From the NCBI GenBank assembly GCA_031270925.1, contig JAISWY010000253.1, positions 1-10,392 of the forward strand: a DNA stretch of 10,392 nt, written 5' to 3'. The position numbers and the translations under genes were made by a program. Under the pieces are notes generated by a model that worked only from the letters and a program-made list of their open reading frames with translations, was not told the DNA's origin and did not search any database. The stretch's first letter is position 1, and the number at the start of each line of letters is the position of its first letter. This stretch comes from Candidatus Symbiothrix sp. (GTDB lineage Bacteria > Bacteroidota > Bacteroidia > Bacteroidales > Azobacteroidaceae). This document shows positions 798 to 10,392 of the stretch, piece by piece.

Positions 798-2450
798 ATG
801 AAAAGAATTTGTGTTTTATTCATCTTCCGGTATTTTTTTATTGCACAAGCGGCGGCGATTTATCCCACCGTTCATAATTTTTCACGCCTGCAATCCAATG
901 CGGGAACACAAAACTGGGACATTATCCAGCATGCTAATAATTGGATGTATTTTGCCAACAACCAAGGCATATTGGAATACGACGGCTATCACTGGACAAT
1001 TTATCCGATTGCGAACTATACGAATGTCAGGTCGTTATATTACGATGAAACGGATAACCGCATCTATGCCGGAGCGTTCAACGAATTTGGTTATTATGAA
1101 CGCGATGCGCTCGGAATGTTGAAATATCGCTCGCTCGTACAATATATTTATTCTTCCGAACGCAGCTTTAACGAGATTTGGCGCATCGGAAAAAGTAAGG
1201 AAACCATTTTCTTTCAAGGAGATAGGGAAATTTTCCGGATGAATGGCAATAAAATCGCCAAGTTGAATTTCCCGTATAAGATTGAATGTGCGGCTTTTGT
1301 TCACGACATTTTGCTGGTGGCTTCGCGCGAAGAGGGCGTGATAAGCGTGAACGGAGATTTACTGATGCCTTTGCCCGGAAATGAGCATTTGAAAAACAAG
1401 AAAATCTGCGCCATGCTGCCGTGGAATGCCCAGCAAATCTTATTCGTAACGGCCAACAGCGGCCTGTTTCTCTACGACGGACGATCGATTCGGCCTTTCA
1501 CCACGGATATAGACCGTTTTCTGCAACAAAACCAAATCTTCTGCGCCGAAATAAACGGCGCTAAATTAGCCTTGGGAACTGTTCGTAACGGCGTGATTAT
1601 CAAAGATTTGAAAACAAATGAAACCATCGGCGCCAATGTGAGTTCGGGCTTGCAAAACAATACGGTTCTGAGCTTGGCTTTCGACAAACAGGGCAATTTG
1701 TGGCTGGGATTAGACAAAGGTATTGATTATGTGATGATTAACTCACCAATTTACAATCTTTTCGGCGACGAACGGCTCTACGGCTCCGGTTATTGCTCGC
1801 TGGTGCGCGGCAATCAATTATATTTGGGAACTAATCAAGGCCTCTATGTTACCGGATTTCCGGTACACACATCGCCCGAATCGTTCCCAATTCATCTTTA
1901 CGACCGGCTTCTTGGTCAAGTTTGGAGTTTGACGGAAATACAAAACACGCTTTTTTGCGGCGCCGACCAAGGTGGATTTATCCTCAAAAACGGTGTGGCG
2001 GAACGAATCAAAGAAATCAACGGTACATGGAAATTCATTGAATTACAAAAACATCCGAATTACGTTTTAGGTTCGTCGTACAGCGGATTCTTTCTACTGA
2101 AAAAAGAAAGCGGAAGTTGGAAATTTGTCCGGCACCTCAAAGGTTTCAACGAATCGGGCGGAATGTTTGAAGAAGATTCCACCGGAAATATCTGGTTTTG
2201 CCATTGGATGAAAGGTATTTCCAAACTCTCTTTCGATGCGGAAATGAGCAATTTTTCAGTCGAGCATTTCGGCGCCGGAAAAGGACTCTCGACTAACCAG
2301 AACTATGTTTTAGTCAAAATCAACGGCGAAATCATCGTTTCGGGCAACGATGGGTTTTTCCGTTATAATCCCGTGAGCGACCGTATGGAACATGCCAAAG
2401 ATTACGAAGAACGCTTCGGCATACATCCCCATGCGGTGCGCTTGAAATAA
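798..2450 (+). CDS. Triple-Y/LuxR-type membrane regulator, N-terminal part (periplasmic beta-propeller), ended by in-frame stop
   Basis: This is the N-terminal 550 residues of a one-component regulator of the Bacteroidota type: signal peptide, periplasmic two-component-regulator-like propeller, Y_Y_Y domain, one membrane helix, coiled coil and cytoplasmic LuxR-type HTH. Here we see the signal peptide (residues 1 to about 20, ending AQAAA) and several propeller blades with typical strands. Examples are GILEYDGYHW near 58, GLFLYDG near 222, DKQGNLWLGLDKG near 296 and DSTGNIWF near 459. The frame ends with TAA at 2448-2450, and the same frame continues at once as the next entry, so together they make a normal-length protein of about 966 residues. 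The stop falls inside the last propeller region. As it stands, this part would be an exported propeller with no membrane anchor or DNA-binding domain. The family normally senses sugars or oligosaccharides and controls nearby utilisation genes, which fits the divergent glycoside hydrolase remnant. Confidence 0.85.
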   Translation: MKRICVLFIFRYFFIAQAAAIYPTVHNFSRLQSNAGTQNWDIIQHANNWMYFANNQGILEYDGYHWTIYPIANYTNVRSLYYDETDNRIYAGAFNEFGYYERDALGMLKYRSLVQYIYSSERSFNEIWRIGKSKETIFFQGDREIFRMNGNKIAKLNFPYKIECAAFVHDILLVASREEGVISVNGDLLMPLPGNEHLKNKKICAMLPWNAQQILFVTANSGLFLYDGRSIRPFTTDIDRFLQQNQIFCAEINGAKLALGTVRNGVIIKDLKTNETIGANVSSGLQNNTVLSLAFDKQGNLWLGLDKGIDYVMINSPIYNLFGDERLYGSGYCSLVRGNQLYLGTNQGLYVTGFPVHTSPESFPIHLYDRLLGQVWSLTEIQNTLFCGADQGGFILKNGVAERIKEINGTWKFIELQKHPNYVLGSSYSGFFLLKKESGSWKFVRHLKGFNESGGMFEEDSTGNIWFCHWMKGISKLSFDAEMSNFSVEHFGAGKGLSTNQNYVLVKINGEIIVSGNDGFFRYNPVSDRMEHAKDYEERFGIHPHAVRLK

Positions 2451-3701
2451 ATGCCTACCGGCGTTATTTGGTGCATTTCGTCCTATTATTTCGATATTCC
2501 CAAAAAACAAAAAAACGGCCGATATACAGTCGATCAACCCTCGTTTTTCGCCTATCTGAAAAATAATTTAATCATTGGTTTTGAGCATTTTAATACTATC
2601 GATTCAAGCAATATTCTGATTAGCACCGAAAACGGTTTCGCTTGGCTCGACCGTAAGCGCGACAAAACATCGACAGGATTGCCGCAATCGTTCCAAATCA
2701 TGATCCAAAAAGTGTTTTTGACCAATGAAAAAGATTCGCTTTTATCGGGATATCTTACTCAACAACAAGCTATTCCAAAATTGAAATACCGCGATAACTC
2801 GATTCGTTTTGAATACACAGCGCCCGAATATCGCGACGAACGTGCGGTAACTTACAGCTATCGTTTGGAAAATTTCGATTCCGATTGGTCGGCGTGGTCG
2901 GAAAACAACAGCAAAGAGTACACCAAACTGCCCAAAGGGACTTACTCATTCCTCGTGCGGGCGCGTAACGAATTGGCAACCAACATAGTAGAGACTTCCT
3001 ATCCTTTCACAATTTTGCCGCCGTGGTATGAAAGCCTGTGGGCGATCATGGTTTATACTCTCTTATTAATCGGAATTATTGCACTGTTAATAAGATACAT
3101 AAGAAAAAAATCGACGGAAGGCGCTCGGAAAATGGAAATCCAAAAAGAACAGGAAATGCAGGAAAAAGAAAAGATTTTTCAAGCCGATACGCAAGAAAAA
3201 GAAAAGGAAATCGTATCGCTGAAAAATCAAAAATTGCAATACGAACTGCGCCACAAATCGCAAGAGTTAGCTAATTCAACGATGAACGTGATCCGGAAAA
3301 ACGAAATATTGCTCGAATTGAACAAAATCATTGAAAAAATACATGAAGACATGAATAAATCGGATACCGAAAAATTGCAGCCAAACATCCGTAAACGATT
3401 GAAAATCATGCAACAAGAGATCAAACAAAACATCGAACGCGACGACAATTGGAAAAAATTTGCCGAAAATTTCGATTTGATTTACGAAAATTATCTCAAA
3501 CGACTGAAAGAGCGTTTTCCCGAACTGACGAAGAATGATTTGCGGCTTTGTGCTTATCTGAAAATGGGGCTTAGCTCGAAAGATATGGCGCCGTTGCTCA
3601 ATGTGTCGTACCGGAGTGTGGAGATGTGTCGTTATCGTATCCGGCAGAAATTGGATTTGGCGCGGGATGTTAATTTGATGGATTTTTTGCAGGAGCTTTG
3701 A
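2451..3701 (+). CDS. Triple-Y/LuxR-type membrane regulator, C-terminal part (Y_Y_Y, TM helix, HTH)
   Basis: These 416 residues continue the preceding frame directly after its TAA; the ATG at 2451 is the very next codon. Visible in order are the last propeller strand (GVIWCISSYYF, residues 4-14), the Y_Y_Y domain (about 113-187, with YRLENFDSDWSAW and GTYSFLVRARN), and a membrane helix (about 194-216). A long charged coiled-coil region follows (about 217-340), then a LuxR-type HTH (about 355-403: FPELTKNDLRLCAYLKMGLS, then SVEMCRYRIRQKL). Restarted at 2451 this half would lack a signal peptide, so its sensory part could not normally reach the periplasm. Hence it is probably a fragment of one protein rather than an independent gene. 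Termination-reinitiation at TAAATG, a nonsense mutation or a sequencing error are the options. The frame is otherwise open to the HTH end, so any disruption is recent. Domain identity is confident; functional state is not. Confidence 0.85.
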   Translation: MPTGVIWCISSYYFDIPKKQKNGRYTVDQPSFFAYLKNNLIIGFEHFNTIDSSNILISTENGFAWLDRKRDKTSTGLPQSFQIMIQKVFLTNEKDSLLSGYLTQQQAIPKLKYRDNSIRFEYTAPEYRDERAVTYSYRLENFDSDWSAWSENNSKEYTKLPKGTYSFLVRARNELATNIVETSYPFTILPPWYESLWAIMVYTLLLIGIIALLIRYIRKKSTEGARKMEIQKEQEMQEKEKIFQADTQEKEKEIVSLKNQKLQYELRHKSQELANSTMNVIRKNEILLELNKIIEKIHEDMNKSDTEKLQPNIRKRLKIMQQEIKQNIERDDNWKKFAENFDLIYENYLKRLKERFPELTKNDLRLCAYLKMGLSSKDMAPLLNVSYRSVEMCRYRIRQKLDLARDVNLMDFLQEL

Positions 3702-3861: not shown

Positions 3862-4971
3862 TTATATTTTAATCAACTCGTAATCTATCGTTCCTAACCC
3901 AATTTCTTCGGCGTATTGCAATCCCGCCAACCAATTGGTATTGGGATGAATCATCGTGAATTTATCGACATTCTGCAACTCGCCGTAGTGTTGAGTTTTC
4001 AAAACGGTATTCAAATTGGCACCCGCCTGCGTAACCATATCGGCAGAAGCTTTATCCAAAGCCACGGGATCGAACGATGCGGCAATCCCGATATTCGGTA
4101 CAATGGCGGCATCATTGCAAGCCCAGCAATCGCAATTCGGCGAAACATCCATAATGAAATTGATATGGAAATTCGGTTTGTCCTTCAAAACAGCCGCCGT
4201 GTATTCCGCAATCTTGTAATTCATCACATCGGTTGCATTGTCCCAAACCGGCTGCGCAGCCTCGAATTGGCATACTGCCACGCACTGACCGCAACCAAGG
4301 CATTTCTCATAATCGATTTTAGCTTTCTTATTGACGTTCAAGTGAATTGCGTCGGAGGCACAATAGCGCACGCATTGCCCGCAGGACGTACAAGCCTCCT
4401 CATCGACAATCGGTTGCGACGAAGAATGTAATTCCAATTTACCGGTGCGCGAGGCCGAACCCATTCCAAGGTTTTTCAACGCGCCGCCGAAACCCGCCTG
4501 CTCATGTCCCTTGAAATGGTTCATCGAAACAATAATATCAGCGTCGGCAATGGCAGCGCCGATTTTGGCCGTTTTGCAATACTTCAAATCAATTGAAATT
4601 CCGCGGTAATCGATGGCTTTCAATCCGTCGGCGATAATCACAGGGCAAGGAACGACCATCGGATTGAATCCGTTTTCAAACGCGCTTTCCAAATGGTCGA
4701 TCGCATTGGAGCGCCGACCGAGATACAATGTATTCGAATCGGTCAAAAACGGCTTGGCCTCTTTCGACAATAAAAACCGAACCAAGCGTCCTGCGTAATT
4801 GGCCCGGATATAAGCCAAATTTCCCGGCTCGCCGAAATGGATTTTCACGGCCGTGAACTTATCCTTGAAATCAATTTGCTCAATTCCCGCGCGTTTAATT
4901 AAACTCTCCAACTTGTCCAATAGATTGCGACCGGGTTTGGTGCGCATATCTGTAAAAAATACTTTTGCCAT
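3862..4971 (-). CDS. DUF362 protein with two 4Fe-4S ferredoxin motifs
   Basis: This 369-residue protein has no signal peptide and is probably cytoplasmic. Its DUF362 signature is seen in the segment starting NHFKGHEQAGFGG and continuing with ALKNLGMG (residues 151-171). A ferredoxin-like insert follows with C194-x2-C197-x2-C200-x3-C204 and C224-x2-C227-x2-C230-x3-C234, enough for two 4Fe-4S clusters. Near the end, SPNCDCWAC holds three more cysteines (280, 282, 285), possibly another metal site, before the DPVALD segment (301-306) that recurs in this family. The molecular function of DUF362 is not established; an electron-transfer or metal-dependent role is inference. The length fits a complete protein. 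The start at 4971 gives the usual MAKVFFTDMR beginning. It lies 23 nt downstream of a small membrane-protein gene and is probably cotranscribed with it. It is convergent with the regulator gene. Confidence 0.9.
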   Translation of the reverse strand: MAKVFFTDMRTKPGRNLLDKLESLIKRAGIEQIDFKDKFTAVKIHFGEPGNLAYIRANYAGRLVRFLLSKEAKPFLTDSNTLYLGRRSNAIDHLESAFENGFNPMVVPCPVIIADGLKAIDYRGISIDLKYCKTAKIGAAIADADIIVSMNHFKGHEQAGFGGALKNLGMGSASRTGKLELHSSSQPIVDEEACTSCGQCVRYCASDAIHLNVNKKAKIDYEKCLGCGQCVAVCQFEAAQPVWDNATDVMNYKIAEYTAAVLKDKPNFHINFIMDVSPNCDCWACNDAAIVPNIGIAASFDPVALDKASADMVTQAGANLNTVLKTQHYGELQNVDKFTMIHPNTNWLAGLQYAEEIGLGTIDYELIKI

Positions 4972-5320: not shown

Positions 5321-5328
5321 TACTTTTG
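5321..5328 (+). promoter_or_regulatory. Bacteroidota -7 box for the nuclease/TonB receptor operon
   Basis: TACTTTTG fits TAnnTTTG exactly and ends 19 nt before the ATG at 5348. The -33 region near 5301 reads TTTA rather than TTTG, so this element is imperfect. It is the only good promoter match before the three plus-strand genes, consistent with one transcript covering all of them. Confidence 0.6.
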
Positions 5329-5347: not shown

Positions 5348-6139
5348 ATGAAAAATTATTTGCATCAGGTAGCAGTTGTTTTGAGTAGTTTATTCTTTGT
5401 TTCTAGCCCGTTCTCGGCTTTCGCATGGGGAAGCTTGGGGCATCGAATCATCGGCGAGATGAGCGAAAGCCTGCTGAACGAAAAAGCGAAAGCGCAAATC
5501 TTCGCGCTTACCGACAATGCGAGCGTCGCCATGGTTTCCAATTGGGGCGACGAAGTTCGGTCGGACAAGCAATACGATTATACCTCTAATTGGCATTATA
5601 CCAATATTGCCGGCGGATTGAGTCGCGCGGCTTTCGATTCTATTGCGGTAAAGCAAGATAACGGGCAAAATATTTATCAGGTACTTTTACTGACCGCTTA
5701 TTTGAAACAAGTTCCCAACGATACGGCGATGCTTAAAATGCTGATTCATTTGGTGGAAGATATGCACTGCCCGATGCACTTGGGACATGCCGAAGACAAG
5801 GGCGGAAACACGGTTCAAATCACATGGTTTCGCAATAAATCGAATCTGCACAGCCTTTGGGATAGCGGATTGATTAATTTCCAAAAACTAAGTTATACCG
5901 AATATGCAACGCATTTGATGCGGGTAAACTCCTTGCAAAATATTCCGTTCGACGGAGATGAAAACACTATTCTCGATTGGGCTTGGGAAACTTACACCAA
6001 TACGCAAACAATATACGCTTCTGTTGGGGAAACCGAGAAAGCTTACGAATATGTCTATCATTATAAACCCTTGTTGGAACGGAGTTTAGTGAAGGCCGCC
6101 GAACATTTGGCTGCACTCCTTATTTACATCTATCAATAA
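5348..6139 (+). CDS. Exported S1/P1-type zinc nuclease
   Basis: This 263-residue protein belongs to the S1/P1 nuclease family (phospholipase C/P1 fold), trinuclear-zinc enzymes that cleave single-stranded nucleic acids and remove 3' phosphates from nucleotides. The signal peptide spans residues 1-26 and ends SAFA, so cleavage would expose W27 as the new N-terminus, whose amino group is a zinc ligand in the family. The other ligands of P1 nuclease all have counterparts here: H32 (WGSLGH), D68 (NWGDE), H83 (NWHYTNI), H134, D138 and H144 (HLVEDMHCPMH), and H168 and D172 (NLHSLWD). The length matches the family, so the enzyme should be active in the periplasm or outside the cell. The ATG at 5348 gives the signal peptide and follows a good -7 box. 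The TonB receptor gene starts 40 nt downstream on the same strand, suggesting an operon for using nucleic acids. Confidence 0.93.
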   Translation: MKNYLHQVAVVLSSLFFVSSPFSAFAWGSLGHRIIGEMSESLLNEKAKAQIFALTDNASVAMVSNWGDEVRSDKQYDYTSNWHYTNIAGGLSRAAFDSIAVKQDNGQNIYQVLLLTAYLKQVPNDTAMLKMLIHLVEDMHCPMHLGHAEDKGGNTVQITWFRNKSNLHSLWDSGLINFQKLSYTEYATHLMRVNSLQNIPFDGDENTILDWAWETYTNTQTIYASVGETEKAYEYVYHYKPLLERSLVKAAEHLAALLIYIYQ

Positions 6140-6179
6140 TAGATACACATCAATTTCATTCATTCTAAATTATAAATTT

Positions 6180-8849
6180 ATGAAAATCAGACAGTTGAAA
6201 AGGGTTACTTTTTTGGTAACAACTTTGTTTTGGGCTTTCGCTGCGGCCGCCCAAACTACCGTAAAAGGACAATTAACGGACGCCGCAACGGGCGAGCCGC
6301 TGGTGGGTGTTTCGATTAGCGTGCAAGGCACTACACGAGGCACCGTCAGCGATTTGGATGGAATGTTTACTATCGAAACAGCGGGAAATGAAACTCTATC
6401 TTTCAAGTATGTCGGTTATAAACCCGTTCTGAAAGGAATTAAAACAGGGGCGGTGGATTTGAAAACCATCGCGATGGAATCCGACGCTTTCGCGTTGGAC
6501 GACGTGATTATCACTTCCTCTATCGCCGTTGAACGCCAAACGCCGGTAGCGCTTTCGAGCATCACACCGCAGATTATCGAGGAAAAACTTGGAACAAAAG
6601 AATTTCCCGAAATCTTGAACTCAACGCCGGGCGTGTATGCTACCAAGCAGGGCGGCGGTTTCGGCGATTCGCGTATCAACTTGCGCGGTTTTGAATCGGC
6701 CAACGTTGCCGTAATGGTCAATGGTGTTCCGATGAACGATATGGAATGGGGCGGCGTGTATTGGAGCAATTGGGCCGGATTGGGCGACGTTACTCGTTTG
6801 ATGCAGGTGCAGCGCGGTTTGGGAGCGTCGAAAGTTTCCGCTCCTTCGGTGGGCGGTTCTATTAATATCATTACAAAAAGTACCGACGCCAAAAAAGGCG
6901 GTGCGGTTTCATACGCGATGGGGAATGACGGCTACAATAAAGTATCGTTCAGCGTTTCTACCGGTTTGATGGACAACGGTTGGGCGATAACCTTACTTGG
7001 CGCAAAAACGTCGGGCAACGGCTATATTCAGGGAACCGAATTTGAAGGATATTCCTATTTCTTCAACATTGCAAAACGAATCGGCACAAGCCAGCAACTT
7101 TCGCTGACCGCTTTCGGCGCTCCGCAATGGCACAACCAACGCTACAATGGCGACAAATTGTTTATTTCCGACTGGCAAACCAAAAAAGACGGATACCGCT
7201 ACAACCCTTCTTACGGGTTTGCCAACAATGGACAACGCAAAACCGCATCGTATAACTACTACCACAAACCGCAAATTTCACTCAACCATTTGTGGGACAT
7301 CAACGAAAAATCAAATATTTCGACCGCATTGTACACTTCTATCGGACGTGGCGGCGGATACGGAGCGCGTGGCAACAACAGCAACGACCTTTACGGAACA
7401 ACAAATGGGGTTTTGAACACTAAATACCGCACTATCGAAGGTTATATGGATTACGCCCAACTGGAAGCCGATAACGCGGCTAATCCCAACGGTTCGCAGG
7501 CGATTATCGCAAGTTCGCGCAACGAACACAACTGGTATGGCTTGCTTTCGACTTATACTACTAAAATTCAGAATATCGACCTTTATACAGGTATTGATAT
7601 GCGGTATTACGAAGGTATGCACGATGCGATAATTGTGGATTTGATGGGCGGCGAATTTTTTATTGATCCCGACCGCGCCAACCTACTCAACTCGCGCCGC
7701 AATGATCCCGCCTACACCAATGCCCGTCTGCGCGAAGGCGACATTGTGTATCGCGATAATACCGGTTACGTTGCCCAAGAAGGTGTTTTTGCACAAGCTG
7801 AATATTCAAAAAACGCACTGAATGTTTTTGTTTCGGGTTCGCTGTCGAACAGTTCGTACTGGAAAATCGACCATTTTTATCTTAATAACGAAAAATCGGC
7901 TGTCGGAAATTTCTTGGGCTATACGGCAAAAGGCGGCGCCAATTATAATTTGAATCCACTGCACAACGTGTTTGCCAATATCGGTTACATTTCGCGTGCG
8001 CCGTTTATGAGCGGTGGTTATTTTACCAACATTCATCGAAGTAATGTTGTGAATAAGGACGCTGTAAATGAAAAAGTATTTTCGATTGAACTTGGCTACG
8101 GTTTCCGCTCTCAATATTTGACGGCAAATCTCAACCTTTATCGCACAAACTGGCTCGACAGAACAACGATTCGCACACTCGGAGACGGCCAAAACGACCC
8201 TGTTGTAAACTTGACGGGTATTGATGCGCTGCATCAGGGTATCGAACTCGAAGTTGTGGCTAAACCAATTAAAAGATTGGAAATAAAAGGGATGCTTTCG
8301 CTTGGCGACTGGCGCTGGATTAACAACGCTTCGGGATATGTATATAGTAAAGACGGGCAACCGGTAAATAAAAGCGGCAAACCGATTGATGCCAACGACA
8401 ATCCGATTGCGGAATTTTCGACCGACCACGATCGCGTAATTATGAACCTCGAAAACGTGAAAGTGGGCAATTCGGCGCAGACAACCGCCTTTTTGGGCGT
8501 TCAATACGAATTGCTTAAAAACTTCAATACAGGACTTGATTTTCATTGGTACGCCGACAACTATGCCGACTTTAAAATTTCGGCAAACAGTGGAGAAACA
8601 ACATACATTACTCCTTGGAAAATCCCCGCGGCCGGCATTCTCGACTTTAATGCCAATTACCGTTTCAAAATCGGCGGACTCGACGCTACGCTCTACGGTA
8701 ACATCGATAATTTGCTCAACCAAGAGTATATCGCAGATGCACAAGATTTAACGCCTACAACAGCCGAACCCGACGAATGGAAAAACGGCGTTTCGGTAAT
8801 ATACGGCTTTGGTCGTACCTATTCGGTAAGTCTGAAAGTTAAATTTTAA
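6180..8849 (+). CDS. TonB-dependent outer-membrane receptor
   Basis: This 889-residue protein is a TonB-dependent receptor for energised import across the outer membrane. The signal peptide is residues 1-24 (ending AAAA before QTT). A carboxypeptidase-regulatory-like beta-sandwich follows (about 27-108: VKGQLTDAATGEPLVGVSIS to VGYKPVL), as is usual in Bacteroidota receptors. DDVIITSS near 106-113 resembles a TonB box. The plug domain spans about 120-235 with INLRGFESANVAVMVNGVPM, VYWSNWAGL and GGSINIITK. The rest is a beta-barrel ending in an aromatic residue (YSVSLKVKF, F889), the usual outer-membrane assembly signal. No SusD homologue follows, so it is not a SusC/SusD pair; instead a lipoprotein with a choice-of-anchor-J-like domain starts 26 nt downstream. 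The substrate cannot be read from the sequence. The preceding nuclease gene suggests nucleic-acid fragments, nucleotides or phosphate, as inference. The frame is intact and the length is normal. Confidence 0.93.
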   Translation: MKIRQLKRVTFLVTTLFWAFAAAAQTTVKGQLTDAATGEPLVGVSISVQGTTRGTVSDLDGMFTIETAGNETLSFKYVGYKPVLKGIKTGAVDLKTIAMESDAFALDDVIITSSIAVERQTPVALSSITPQIIEEKLGTKEFPEILNSTPGVYATKQGGGFGDSRINLRGFESANVAVMVNGVPMNDMEWGGVYWSNWAGLGDVTRLMQVQRGLGASKVSAPSVGGSINIITKSTDAKKGGAVSYAMGNDGYNKVSFSVSTGLMDNGWAITLLGAKTSGNGYIQGTEFEGYSYFFNIAKRIGTSQQLSLTAFGAPQWHNQRYNGDKLFISDWQTKKDGYRYNPSYGFANNGQRKTASYNYYHKPQISLNHLWDINEKSNISTALYTSIGRGGGYGARGNNSNDLYGTTNGVLNTKYRTIEGYMDYAQLEADNAANPNGSQAIIASSRNEHNWYGLLSTYTTKIQNIDLYTGIDMRYYEGMHDAIIVDLMGGEFFIDPDRANLLNSRRNDPAYTNARLREGDIVYRDNTGYVAQEGVFAQAEYSKNALNVFVSGSLSNSSYWKIDHFYLNNEKSAVGNFLGYTAKGGANYNLNPLHNVFANIGYISRAPFMSGGYFTNIHRSNVVNKDAVNEKVFSIELGYGFRSQYLTANLNLYRTNWLDRTTIRTLGDGQNDPVVNLTGIDALHQGIELEVVAKPIKRLEIKGMLSLGDWRWINNASGYVYSKDGQPVNKSGKPIDANDNPIAEFSTDHDRVIMNLENVKVGNSAQTTAFLGVQYELLKNFNTGLDFHWYADNYADFKISANSGETTYITPWKIPAAGILDFNANYRFKIGGLDATLYGNIDNLLNQEYIADAQDLTPTTAEPDEWKNGVSVIYGFGRTYSVSLKVKF

Positions 8850-8875
8850 TCATTAACATATTAAATTTTTATAAA

Positions 8876-10392
8876 ATGAGAAAAAATATATTTTTCACAG
8901 TTGTAATCGCCATGCTTGTTTTCGCAGCCTGCGATTACCATAAGGATTTCGACGGTTTGGACGAACTCGTCAATAAAACAGAAGCTGTTACTTTCGAATA
9001 TACCGTTGTAAATGAAGATTTTGCAATTATTGCAACGGAATTGAAGAAAAATAAAAACGCTGCCGACTCGCTGACTGCTACGGCATTGAGCAAAAACAAA
9101 ATTTTTTCGGTTGATTATCCGGCTATGCAATATCTGCCTTCTCTGTTGAAAGTCAAATATCCCGGCGCAAGCAAAAACTCGGCAGTAAAAGTTACTTTCG
9201 CTTACAAAAACGGCTCAACAGGATTTTACAAACTGACATCTGATAATTATACTCAGATTTGGGATGGTGTTTCTACCGTTGGTGCGCTGACGCCGTCGAA
9301 ACCTGCAAATTCGATTGTTCCCGACTTGCTTGCCGGCAAATATCCGAAGGCCTTGGATGGCGATGTGAAAATTGTGGAATATGAATATTCCGATACCGAA
9401 CCGGGGCAAAATGAAACGGTTGTACCACAGTTAGATGAAAATTTCAACAGTTTTACAACTACCGGAACGGATAAATATTTCAGCGACCAAGAAGATGCCA
9501 AAGCTTGGAAAGGCGTTACGGAAACAGGCGTGTTGCAACCCGATATTCGCGCATATTCAGGCAATAATTATGTGCAGTTTTCGGCACACCGTTCTTCTAA
9601 TCCGGATGTAAATGCCGGCGATCTTCAAAAAATGTGGGCGGTTTCGCCGGCTGTGGACATTCGCGATGGCTCAAAACTCTCGTTTGAAACTGCTGGCGGA
9701 TATTTTAATGCCTCGACCGTTTTTGAAGTGTATGCGCTTGACAGCGACAATCCCGTAACGGCAAACAAAACCAAACTCGAAGGTTGGCATCTTGCCGAAA
9801 CGGACGACATTGTTTCTGGAAGTTACACGCCGTTTATGCCGTCGGGCGAGATTGATTTGTCGGATTTTGCAGGAACAACACAATACATCGGTTTTTGTTA
9901 TACCGGAACAAGCGGAAGCGGTAATTCAACTACTTATCAACTTGATAATGTAAATATTTCTTATACCGATATTTCAACTGCTGTTAGCGAAAAAGAAACC
10001 CGCTTCGGTTATTTCAAATTCGAAAACGCGGTATGGAGCAATATTGATAAAGATTTCTATCAACTTGCCGAAGAAGATTATCAGAAGATTGGAAAAACCG
10101 AGATTGCTGTTGCCGATGCGCCCCAATATTTGCCTATACTTTTGCAACAGAAAGCTCCTTATGCACAATCGGGCGATATTAAAGTCATGGTTTACAAAAC
10201 TTCTGCTACAGCGAATGCCGCCGACGAATATGTTTATAAAGACGGAGCGTGGTCGCCTGTTTCGTTTGTTGAAACCCAAACCGAACAATACAGATTTTCA
10301 GGCTGGGATCATCAAGCATGGGTTTTCGATCCTTCTATTTATGTAACAATGAAAAAAGGTATCGCCGAAACAGACGATTATATGCTTGTTAC
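8876..10392 (+). CDS. Surface lipoprotein with repeated motif and choice-of-anchor-J-like domain (partial, runs off the window)
   Basis: An uninterrupted frame from the ATG at 8876 gives 505 complete codons before the window ends. Residues 1-18 are a lipoprotein signal peptide followed by Cys19 (MLVFAAC), and the acidic stretch after it (CDYHKDFDGLDE) may favour surface export. Residues about 186-366 look like a choice-of-anchor-J or DUF5017-type beta-sandwich: LDENFNSF at the start, GNNYVQFSAHR, MWAVSPAVDI, and TTYQLDNVNISYTD at the end. A motif of the form YLPxLLxxKxPxAxxGDxKVxxxY occurs three times, at residues 86-112, 147-173 and 418-442, flanking this domain. GWDHQAWVFDPSIYVTM (479-491 region) looks like the end of the last repeat unit. 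The gene follows the TonB receptor by 26 nt, so it is probably its extracellular partner, in the place SusD holds elsewhere. Its ligand is unknown. More domains may follow beyond the window. Confidence 0.8.
   Translation, partial: MRKNIFFTVVIAMLVFAACDYHKDFDGLDELVNKTEAVTFEYTVVNEDFAIIATELKKNKNAADSLTATALSKNKIFSVDYPAMQYLPSLLKVKYPGASKNSAVKVTFAYKNGSTGFYKLTSDNYTQIWDGVSTVGALTPSKPANSIVPDLLAGKYPKALDGDVKIVEYEYSDTEPGQNETVVPQLDENFNSFTTTGTDKYFSDQEDAKAWKGVTETGVLQPDIRAYSGNNYVQFSAHRSSNPDVNAGDLQKMWAVSPAVDIRDGSKLSFETAGGYFNASTVFEVYALDSDNPVTANKTKLEGWHLAETDDIVSGSYTPFMPSGEIDLSDFAGTTQYIGFCYTGTSGSGNSTTYQLDNVNISYTDISTAVSEKETRFGYFKFENAVWSNIDKDFYQLAEEDYQKIGKTEIAVADAPQYLPILLQQKAPYAQSGDIKVMVYKTSATANAADEYVYKDGAWSPVSFVETQTEQYRFSGWDHQAWVFDPSIYVTMKKGIAETDDYMLV

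What the first reader, a model, noticed from the sequence alone, without database searches (positions are those of the whole stretch)
5348..10392. Putative nucleic-acid scavenging operon: S1/P1 nuclease, TonB receptor, anchor-J lipoprotein
Three tightly spaced plus-strand genes (gaps of 40 and 26 nt) behind one promoter encode an exported nuclease, an outer-membrane importer and a surface lipoprotein in the position where SusD would sit. The layout parallels polysaccharide utilisation loci but with a nuclease as the degrading enzyme. I recall anchor-J/TonB pairs beside endonuclease/phosphatase genes in Bacteroidota, so such a gene might follow beyond the window. This is the best candidate here for a little-described system.
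Basis: inference. Interest (0 to 1): 0.7.

Follow-up and report, generated by a model that had tools for sequence, protein, structure and literature searches.

The report
Nucleic-acid import locus with swappable nucleases
A bacterium probably from a termite gut carries three adjacent genes for an exported nuclease, an outer-membrane importer and its surface partner; in relatives the importer stays while the neighbouring nuclease changes type, which suggests a machine for taking up DNA or RNA.

Summary
In detail: three plus-strand genes with gaps of 40 and 26 nt encode an S1/P1 nuclease, a TonB-dependent receptor (TBDR) below the SusC cut-off, and a choice-of-anchor-J lipoprotein cut by the contig end. 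Receptor plus lipoprotein is the conserved unit (adjacent in 77 of 80 named loci). The S1/P1 trio recurs in four other loci, one in another family with a nuclease only 33-35% identical. Elsewhere the pair has Endonuclease_NS (13 loci), a 5'-nucleotidase (3) or Endonuclease I (2) nearby; 20 more distant receptors of the same kind, without the lipoprotein, have a secreted Endonuclease I just downstream in 15 and a PLD-like enzyme in 3. A related TBDR/anchor-J pair sits beside an Exo_endo_phos_3 gene in 23 of 25 loci, Riemerella columbina included; in Riemerella such a pair is essential for natural transformation (PMC8459023). So nucleic-acid import is well supported by neighbourhood, though scavenging and DNA uptake for transformation cannot be separated, most pair loci show no nuclease, and binding, transport and growth data are lacking. 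A new variant of a known kind: TBDR, surface partner and exported hydrolase.

The parts
5321..5328 (+). Candidate Bacteroidota -7 promoter element TACTTTTG (TAnnTTTG); no match in the gaps between the three genes
   Evidence: pattern only; motif recalled; no experiment
5348..6139 (+). S1/P1-type zinc nuclease, 263 aa, type I signal peptide by inspection; predicted mature N-terminus at Trp27; metal-site motifs present
6180..8849 (+). TonB-dependent outer-membrane receptor, 889 aa, with N-terminal CarbopepD_reg_2 domain; below the SusC/RagA cut-off
8876..10390 (+). Choice-of-anchor-J lipoprotein (lipobox Cys19), first 505 aa; cut by the contig end (the 19 relatives aligned are 624-665 aa)

Best explanation
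The locus encodes a nucleic-acid uptake route. SHOWN: three adjacent co-directional genes; a nuclease with an exported N-terminus and metal-site motifs; a TBDR; an anchor-J lipoprotein; repeated association of this receptor lineage and of a related TBDR/anchor-J pair with unrelated nuclease or nucleotidase families. INFERRED: the lipoprotein sits on the cell surface over the TBDR and captures DNA or RNA or its fragments; the TBDR brings them through the outer membrane with TonB energy; the S1/P1 nuclease cuts them, most likely in the periplasm, to nucleotides for phosphate, nucleoside and carbon supply. In Bacteroides the cutting enzyme is mostly a lipoprotein, and in more distant lineages a T9SS-tailed secreted Endonuclease I, so there cutting may come first, outside the cell. 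The related pair of Riemerella serves natural transformation, so the ligand is probably nucleic acid, with the local nuclease deciding what happens to it.
For: Pair adjacency in 77 of 80 named loci. Endonuclease_NS at exactly +2, same strand, in 13 loci and at no other place in the flanks held of those 87 pair loci; 3 of the 13 were scanned with Pfam directly, and in the 7 whose genomes were searched whole with PF01223 all 7 were found again. S1/P1 at exactly -1 in the window, L077, L117, L119 and L247, and before a SusC-sized TBDR and a true SusD in L342. 5'-nucleotidase within three genes in L042, L048 and L169. Receptor-lipoprotein-Endonuclease_NS-Exo_endo_phos_3 in a row in Phocaeicola coprocola (L096) and Bacteroides sp. 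An322 (L103). Endonuclease I within +1 to +3 in 15 of 20 further receptors picked by receptor similarity alone. Related pair beside an Exo_endo_phos_3-type gene in 23 of 25 loci, including Riemerella columbina (L209; named through) and, as receptor plus nuclease, the window's own genome (L277). The S1/P1 neighbour needs 4 changes on the receptor tree. In R. anatipestifer both genes of such a pair are essential for transformation and tonB mutants are impaired (PMC8459023, PMC8383284; abstracts and passages read).
Against: Of 84 pair loci not picked by their nuclease, 66 have none of four profiled families within three genes (65 if Endonuclease I is added), although some contigs end early. Of 26 related receptors called without the lipoprotein, none has the four families and one has Endonuclease I. 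S1/P1 stands alone in G006 (L118). The lipoprotein is strongly acidic (pI 4.5, net -26), unlike a simple DNA-binding surface; the DUF5689 proteins of R. anatipestifer (5.41) and R. columbina (4.99) are acidic too, so this does not decide. The window pair is not the orthologue of the Riemerella pair (23% identity, separate clades). No ligand, transcription or growth data exist.
Confidence: 0.67

Rival explanations
1. The pair imports something else (for example a metal complex, vitamin, peptide or glycan), and the nuclease is a co-regulated or chance neighbour.
For: Most pair loci have none of the nuclease families tested; the lipoprotein jelly-roll resembles carbohydrate-binding and MAM-type folds; the receptor model resembles siderophore, PQQ and copper receptors, as any TBDR would.
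Against: Five unrelated nucleic-acid hydrolase families recur close to these receptors, often at fixed positions; the related Riemerella pair is essential for transformation.
Confidence: 0.15
2. The pair is a DNA-uptake machine for natural transformation, and the nuclease trims incoming DNA for ComEC rather than feeding the cell.
For: Related TBDR/anchor-J pair essential for transformation in R. anatipestifer, tonB mutants impaired (PMC8459023, PMC8383284); the window's genome has a comEC match; Endonuclease_NS is the family of the pneumococcal competence nuclease EndA (recalled).
Against: Window pair and Riemerella pair fall in separate clades, the window lipoprotein shows no DUF5689, and the same genome has a Riemerella-type receptor on another contig beside an Exo_endo_phos_3 gene. 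S1/P1 enzymes degrade single strands to nucleotides (recalled), which would destroy transforming DNA. comEC is widespread (10 of 14 control genomes).
Confidence: 0.13
3. The nuclease acts apart from the pair, clearing extracellular DNA or RNA (biofilm, competitor or phage nucleic acid), and merely lies upstream.
For: S1/P1 stands without the pair in G006, and 23 of the 26 S1/P1-bearing Bacteroidales genomes show no receptor match within 1.5 kb (the others are the window, L233/L247 and the SusC-like L245/L342); an extracellular DNase of B. thetaiotaomicron, BT3563, acts in biofilms (PMC11078008, passages read).
Against: Tight same-strand spacing (29-40 nt in the window, L117, L119 and L247; 126 nt in L077) and recurrence beside four separately placed receptor lineages.
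Confidence: 0.1

Closest known systems
Riemerella natural-transformation pair RA0C_RS04915 / RA0C_RS04920 (PMC8459023)
   Same: TBDR-like outer-membrane protein with carboxypeptidase-regulatory domain followed by an anchor-J protein with DUF5017 similarity (passages); receptors of the matching type align end to end with the window's (hhalign 100%), the anchor-J domains align (99.6%), and 3 of 7 window-type lipoproteins scanned match DUF5017; a nuclease gene is adjacent in R. columbina (L209)
   Different: 23% identity and separate receptor clade; lipoprotein carries DUF5689, absent from the window's; adjacent nuclease is Exo_endo_phos_3-type and divergent
SusCD polysaccharide utilisation loci
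   Same: Layout: exported hydrolase, TonB-dependent barrel, surface lipoprotein; one S1/P1 gene does precede a true SusC-sized/SusD pair (L342)
   Different: Window receptor 89 bits against the 368-bit SusC cut-off; its lipoprotein is a jelly-roll anchor-J protein with no SusD match; hydrolase is a nuclease
Phosphate utilisation systems (PusCD) of Flavobacterium (PMC8115612)
   Same: TBDR plus surface protein plus phosphoesterase, proposed to scavenge phosphodiesters including nucleic acids (abstract and passages read)
   Different: Those complexes are SusCD-like; the EndA nucleases listed there (pf04231 with pf00932) are marked orphan
B. thetaiotaomicron extracellular DNase BT3563 (PMC11078008)
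   Same: An exported DNase of a gut Bacteroidales
   Different: Its genomic neighbours could not be checked here (the primary paper is not held); reported role is in biofilm (passages)

Membership tests
S1/P1 nuclease | PF02265 match over the curated cut-off | tested here: met
   139.5 bits against 29.5; best solved relative 8qjl, E 2.5e-29
S1/P1 nuclease | Mature N-terminal Trp and His/Asp zinc-ligand motifs | tested here: met
   Motifs WGSLGH at 27, DEVR at 68, WHYTN at 82, HLVEDMHCPMH at 134, HSLWD at 168; ligand roles and cleavage site recalled or by inspection
S1/P1 nuclease | Nuclease activity | not testable with these tools
   needs enzyme assay
SusC/SusD system | Receptor over the SusC/RagA cut-off (TIGR04056) | tested here: not met
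   89.4 bits against 368.25
SusC/SusD system | SusD-family lipoprotein after the receptor | tested here: not met
   No Pfam match at E 0.01; choice_anch_J instead; no SusD among the 50 fold matches listed
Riemerella-type transformation pair | TBDR in the same clade | tested here: not met
   Riemerella-type rows form one branch (100*), the window's kind another (93), quick tree. How the two join relative to other TBDRs is unresolved
Riemerella-type transformation pair | Anchor-J domain in the partner | tested here: met
   NF038128 over cut-off; profile match over 184 columns
Riemerella-type transformation pair | DUF5689 domain in the partner | tested here: not met
   No Pfam match in the 505 aa held; no DUF5689 in seven other window-type lipoproteins of 387-799 aa
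Riemerella-type transformation pair | Needed for natural transformation | not testable with these tools
   needs mutants

The most novel reading that the evidence does not exclude
Bacteroidota have a widespread TonB-powered outer-membrane importer for DNA or RNA, a TBDR lineage with an anchor-J lipoprotein or other surface partner, that is paired with freely exchanged nucleases: S1/P1, Endonuclease_NS, Endonuclease I, Exo_endo_phos_3 and 5'-nucleotidase. One branch feeds transformation and another feeds nucleotide and phosphate supply.
Probability: 0.5. Interest if true: 0.82.

Novelty: new variant of a known kind. Interest (0 to 1): 0.66.

Why it matters
TBDRs are known mainly for iron complexes, vitamins and glycans (recalled), and how DNA crosses the outer membrane of competent Bacteroidota rests on a speculative model (so called in PMC8459023). 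If this TBDR lineage imports nucleic acids, one gene family would link nutrient scavenging and gene transfer, and culturable gut species with receptor-lipoprotein-nuclease operons make it directly testable.

Tried and rejected
SusC/SusD membership: rejected on cut-offs. Direct orthology with the Riemerella transformation pair: rejected. Reading past 10392 in the same genome: not possible, the window is the contig. comEC near the pairs: not seen by similarity in the 20 wide loci and the 20, but the query was one partial sequence from the window's genome, so this is weak. Structure models: the receptor model is poor (pLDDT 67.9, residues 101-237 under 50) and its fold matches say only 'TBDR'; the lipoprotein model (pLDDT 80.5) gives jelly-roll matches, not a ligand. 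Independent-pairs test of lipoprotein against nuclease on the receptor tree: no power (4 pairs, median p 1). Literature: nine searches of an open-licence library listed no paper that I could recognise as describing a nuclease-TBDR-anchor-J locus; 'DUF5689' is held in one paper only. Subscription papers and preprints were not searched, and listings were read rather than all papers.

A contrast I had drawn first, 18 of 84 pair loci with one of four nuclease families against 0 of 26 receptors without the lipoprotein, does not stand: checking showed Endonuclease I directly after the receptor in L170, then in most of 20 further loci without the lipoprotein. The nuclease link belongs to the receptor lineage, not to the lipoprotein alone. 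This raised my confidence from 0.60 to 0.67. Doubtful rows among the 26: L101 and L108 (lipoprotein may be missed by gene calling), L255, L256 and L278 (downstream side cut by the contig end); L170 also has a housekeeping-type exodeoxyribonuclease III three genes away.

Caveats on counts: the Endonuclease_NS, 5'-nucleotidase, Exo_endo_phos_3 and Endonuclease I profiles were built partly from the neighbour genes they then found, so their presence there is circular (independently supported); their positions and their absence elsewhere are not. L117, L119 and L247 were fetched because of their nuclease. The 20 loci were chosen by receptor similarity after L170 had been seen; all 20 are counted. 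The Endonuclease I profile includes a T9SS tail, and its hits on tail alone (L055, L202, L209 and others) were not counted. Gene calling was a longest-ORF script with ATG starts. In the neighbour tallies, genes of the four families, genes cut by locus ends and genes over 1300 aa were left out.
Full report
WHAT IS THERE. Its genus includes two genomes of 1.0-1.2 Mb, and named relatives of the nuclease include Dysgonamonadaceae and Prevotellaceae metagenome bins; the host is probably a termite-gut Bacteroidales (the link of such bins with termites is recalled). Three plus-strand genes lie at 5348-6139, 6180-8849 and 8876-10390, gaps 40 and 26 nt, the last cut by the contig end. The nuclease is PF02265 (139.5 bits) with an exported N-terminus and metal-site motifs starting at the predicted mature Trp27. 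The receptor has CarbopepD_reg_2, plug and barrel domains but 89.4 bits against the 368.25 cut-off for SusC. The third protein is a lipoprotein (Cys19) with a choice-of-anchor-J domain. A TAnnTTTG element lies 19 nt before the nuclease start, and none lies in the two gaps.

THE PAIR IS THE CONSERVED UNIT. A scan of species genomes with the receptor alignment gave 80 named loci (the best 80 of 558 confirmed). The gene directly after the receptor belongs to one lipoprotein cluster in 77 of 80, mostly within about 40 nt, with exceptions up to several hundred. S1/P1 lies upstream in 1 of these 80 (L077, a Dysgonamonadaceae bin). In the window's genus S1/P1 is found in 5 of 38 genomes: three have it directly before the pair (window, G017 = L117, G061 = L119), one stands without the pair (G006 = L118), and in the fifth (G031 = L120) the side where the pair would lie is cut by the contig end. 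In the order, 26 of 393 genomes have an S1/P1 match. A receptor lies directly after it in three: the window; G556 (L247), where the full trio has gaps of 34 and 37 nt although the nuclease is only 33-35% identical; and G676 (L342), where S1/P1 precedes a 1141-aa TBDR and a true SusD protein, gaps 42 and 10 nt. Another trio is suggested, not shown, by a nuclease and a receptor that both lie on contigs of 4653 bases named Dysgonamonadaceae (P0176, P0007).

THE NUCLEASE IS EXCHANGED. On a quick maximum-likelihood tree of 99 receptors the S1/P1-bearing receptors sit in four places, needing 4 changes of that label among 64 rows. Window and L117 share 67% in the nuclease but 48% in the receptor and 33% in the lipoprotein; L117 and L077 share 60%, 48% and 60%. 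This mosaic points to repeated re-pairing or recombination. In other loci of the same pair the neighbour is a different enzyme. Endonuclease_NS (PF01223) lies at exactly +2 in 13 of the 80 named loci and nowhere else in the flanks held. A 5'-nucleotidase lies in L042, L048 (Odoribacter laneus, one gene between, assigned by clustering with L042) and L169. Endonuclease I lies at -2 in L169 and +3 in L250. An Exo_endo_phos_3-type gene lies within three genes in L044, L096 and L103; the last two, Phocaeicola coprocola DSM 17136 and Bacteroides sp. An322, have receptor, lipoprotein, Endonuclease_NS and Exo_endo_phos_3 in a row, confirmed with the Pfam models. Of 84 pair loci not fetched for their nuclease, 18 have one of the four first families within three genes, 19 with Endonuclease I; the rest have none of these. 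Pfam tallies of 37 downstream and 40 upstream same-strand neighbours show no further nuclease family among the 25 commonest entries listed in each, apart from one PLD-like protein upstream. PF01223 has 26 copies in 16 of 19 genomes searched, several of them chosen because they carry it; 14 of the 26 lie away from a pair in the flanks held.

RECEPTORS WITHOUT THE LIPOPROTEIN. Of 26 related receptors called without the anchor-J partner, none has the first four families within three genes, but L170 is followed after 19 nt by a T9SS-tailed Endonuclease I (PF04231, 97.7 bits). I therefore fetched 20 further receptors, chosen by receptor similarity only. Fifteen of 20 have an Endonuclease I at +1 to +3 on the same strand (17 of 25 proteins scanned match PF04231, the other two being L169 and L250). 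Three more (L344, and by 37-38% identity to it L359 and L360) have at +1 a T9SS-tailed PLD-like protein, which in L344 also carries DUF5689. L347 and L350 have neither. The gene before the receptor is a T9SS-tailed lamin-tail-domain protein in 19 of 20.

A RELATED PAIR WITH A KNOWN PHENOTYPE. PMC8459023 (abstract and passages read) reports that markerless deletion of RA0C_RS04915 (outer-membrane protein with carboxypeptidase-regulatory domain) or of RA0C_RS04920 (choice-of-anchor J, DUF5689, DUF5017) abolishes natural transformation of Riemerella anatipestifer; PMC8383284 (abstract and passages) reports that tonBA and tonBB mutants are impaired, the latter explained there by iron supply. To find such pairs I searched DUF5689 in 40 genomes of one family: 35 of 40 had it. 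In 20 wide loci from these genomes it follows a TBDR, and an Exo_endo_phos_3-type gene is next to that TBDR in 18 (Pfam identity for L203). With L277 and L279-L282, 23 of 25 such receptors have it adjacent to the pair, the exceptions being L202 and L218. One of the genomes is Riemerella columbina: the lipoprotein of L209 is identical to the protein so named, and both lie on a contig of 2,044,714 bases. R. columbina is reported naturally competent (PMC7965970, abstract and passages). R. anatipestifer proteins named DUF5689 are 60-62% identical to it; identity with RA0C_RS04920 by accession was not checked. A second genome of the same genus code (G337, L341) has the same arrangement.

HOW THE TWO PAIRS RELATE. 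The receptors align end to end (840 columns, 23% identity, probability 100%) and the anchor-J domains align (184 columns, 99.6%), but they form separate branches, and the window lipoprotein shows no DUF5689. The window's genome carries both kinds: a Riemerella-type receptor on contig C83, cut by the contig end before any lipoprotein, with an Exo_endo_phos_3 gene 137 nt away, divergent (L277). In Dysgonomonas macrotermitis, Odoribacter laneus and Bacteroides sp. GM023 the Riemerella-type pair has both Exo_endo_phos_3 and Endonuclease_NS nearby (L279-L282).

MECHANISM. Location signals differ by enzyme: the 26 S1/P1 seeds printed (of 38) and the 26 Exo_endo_phos_3 seeds show no lipobox, 12 of 13 Endonuclease_NS sequences match a lipobox pattern, and the Endonuclease I proteins beside the lipoprotein-free receptors mostly carry a T9SS tail (Por_Secre_tail in 19 of the 25 proteins scanned). 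The likeliest scheme is capture at the surface, TonB-driven entry through the receptor, and cutting outside or in the periplasm according to the enzyme; for the window, periplasmic S1/P1 digestion. Binding, transport and periplasmic location are inferred. The acidic lipoprotein (pI 4.5) is a point against plain charge-driven DNA binding, but the R. anatipestifer and R. columbina DUF5689 proteins are acidic as well (5.41 and 4.99). Models of the lipoprotein (pLDDT 80.5) and receptor (67.9) give only general folds.

VERDICT. In the searched library I found no description of such a locus.

Noticed in passing
window 798-3701: Two abutting + frames (550 aa with a Reg_prop repeat; 416 aa with Y_Y_Y and a LuxR-type HTH below its cut-off) look like one sensor-regulator read as two ORFs; the first ends in TAA directly before the second's ATG.
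   Followed up: no
window 3862-4971 (-): DUF362 plus 4Fe-4S ferredoxin-type protein, on the strand opposite the operon.
   Followed up: no
L343-L362, e.g. L343:10509-11477: A lamin-tail-domain protein with a T9SS tail lies just before the receptor in 19 of 20 loci whose receptor is followed mostly by Endonuclease I; it may replace the anchor-J lipoprotein as surface partner.
   Followed up: partly
L344:11596-13797: DUF5689, the domain of the Riemerella transformation protein, is fused to a PLD-like domain and a T9SS tail directly after a window-type receptor.
   Followed up: no
L342 (G676): S1/P1 nuclease, SusC-sized TBDR and SusD in a row, with a glycerophosphodiester phosphodiesterase-like gene two genes further: a SusCD locus that may target phosphodiesters.
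   Followed up: partly
L153-L158: A solitary TBDR of the same broad kind, without anchor-J partner, recurs with conserved neighbours; several loci carry what looks like a phosphoglucose isomerase gene just upstream (my reading of the sequence, not scanned).
   Followed up: partly
L279 5631-7325 and L280 10030-11796: An unidentified protein of 564-588 aa with a lipoprotein-like start lies between Endonuclease_NS and the Riemerella-type receptor in Dysgonomonas macrotermitis and Odoribacter laneus.
   Followed up: no
L296 and L330 (window's own genome, contigs C200 and C237): Further Endonuclease_NS and Exo_endo_phos_3 genes of the same genome with no receptor match in the flanks held.
   Followed up: partly
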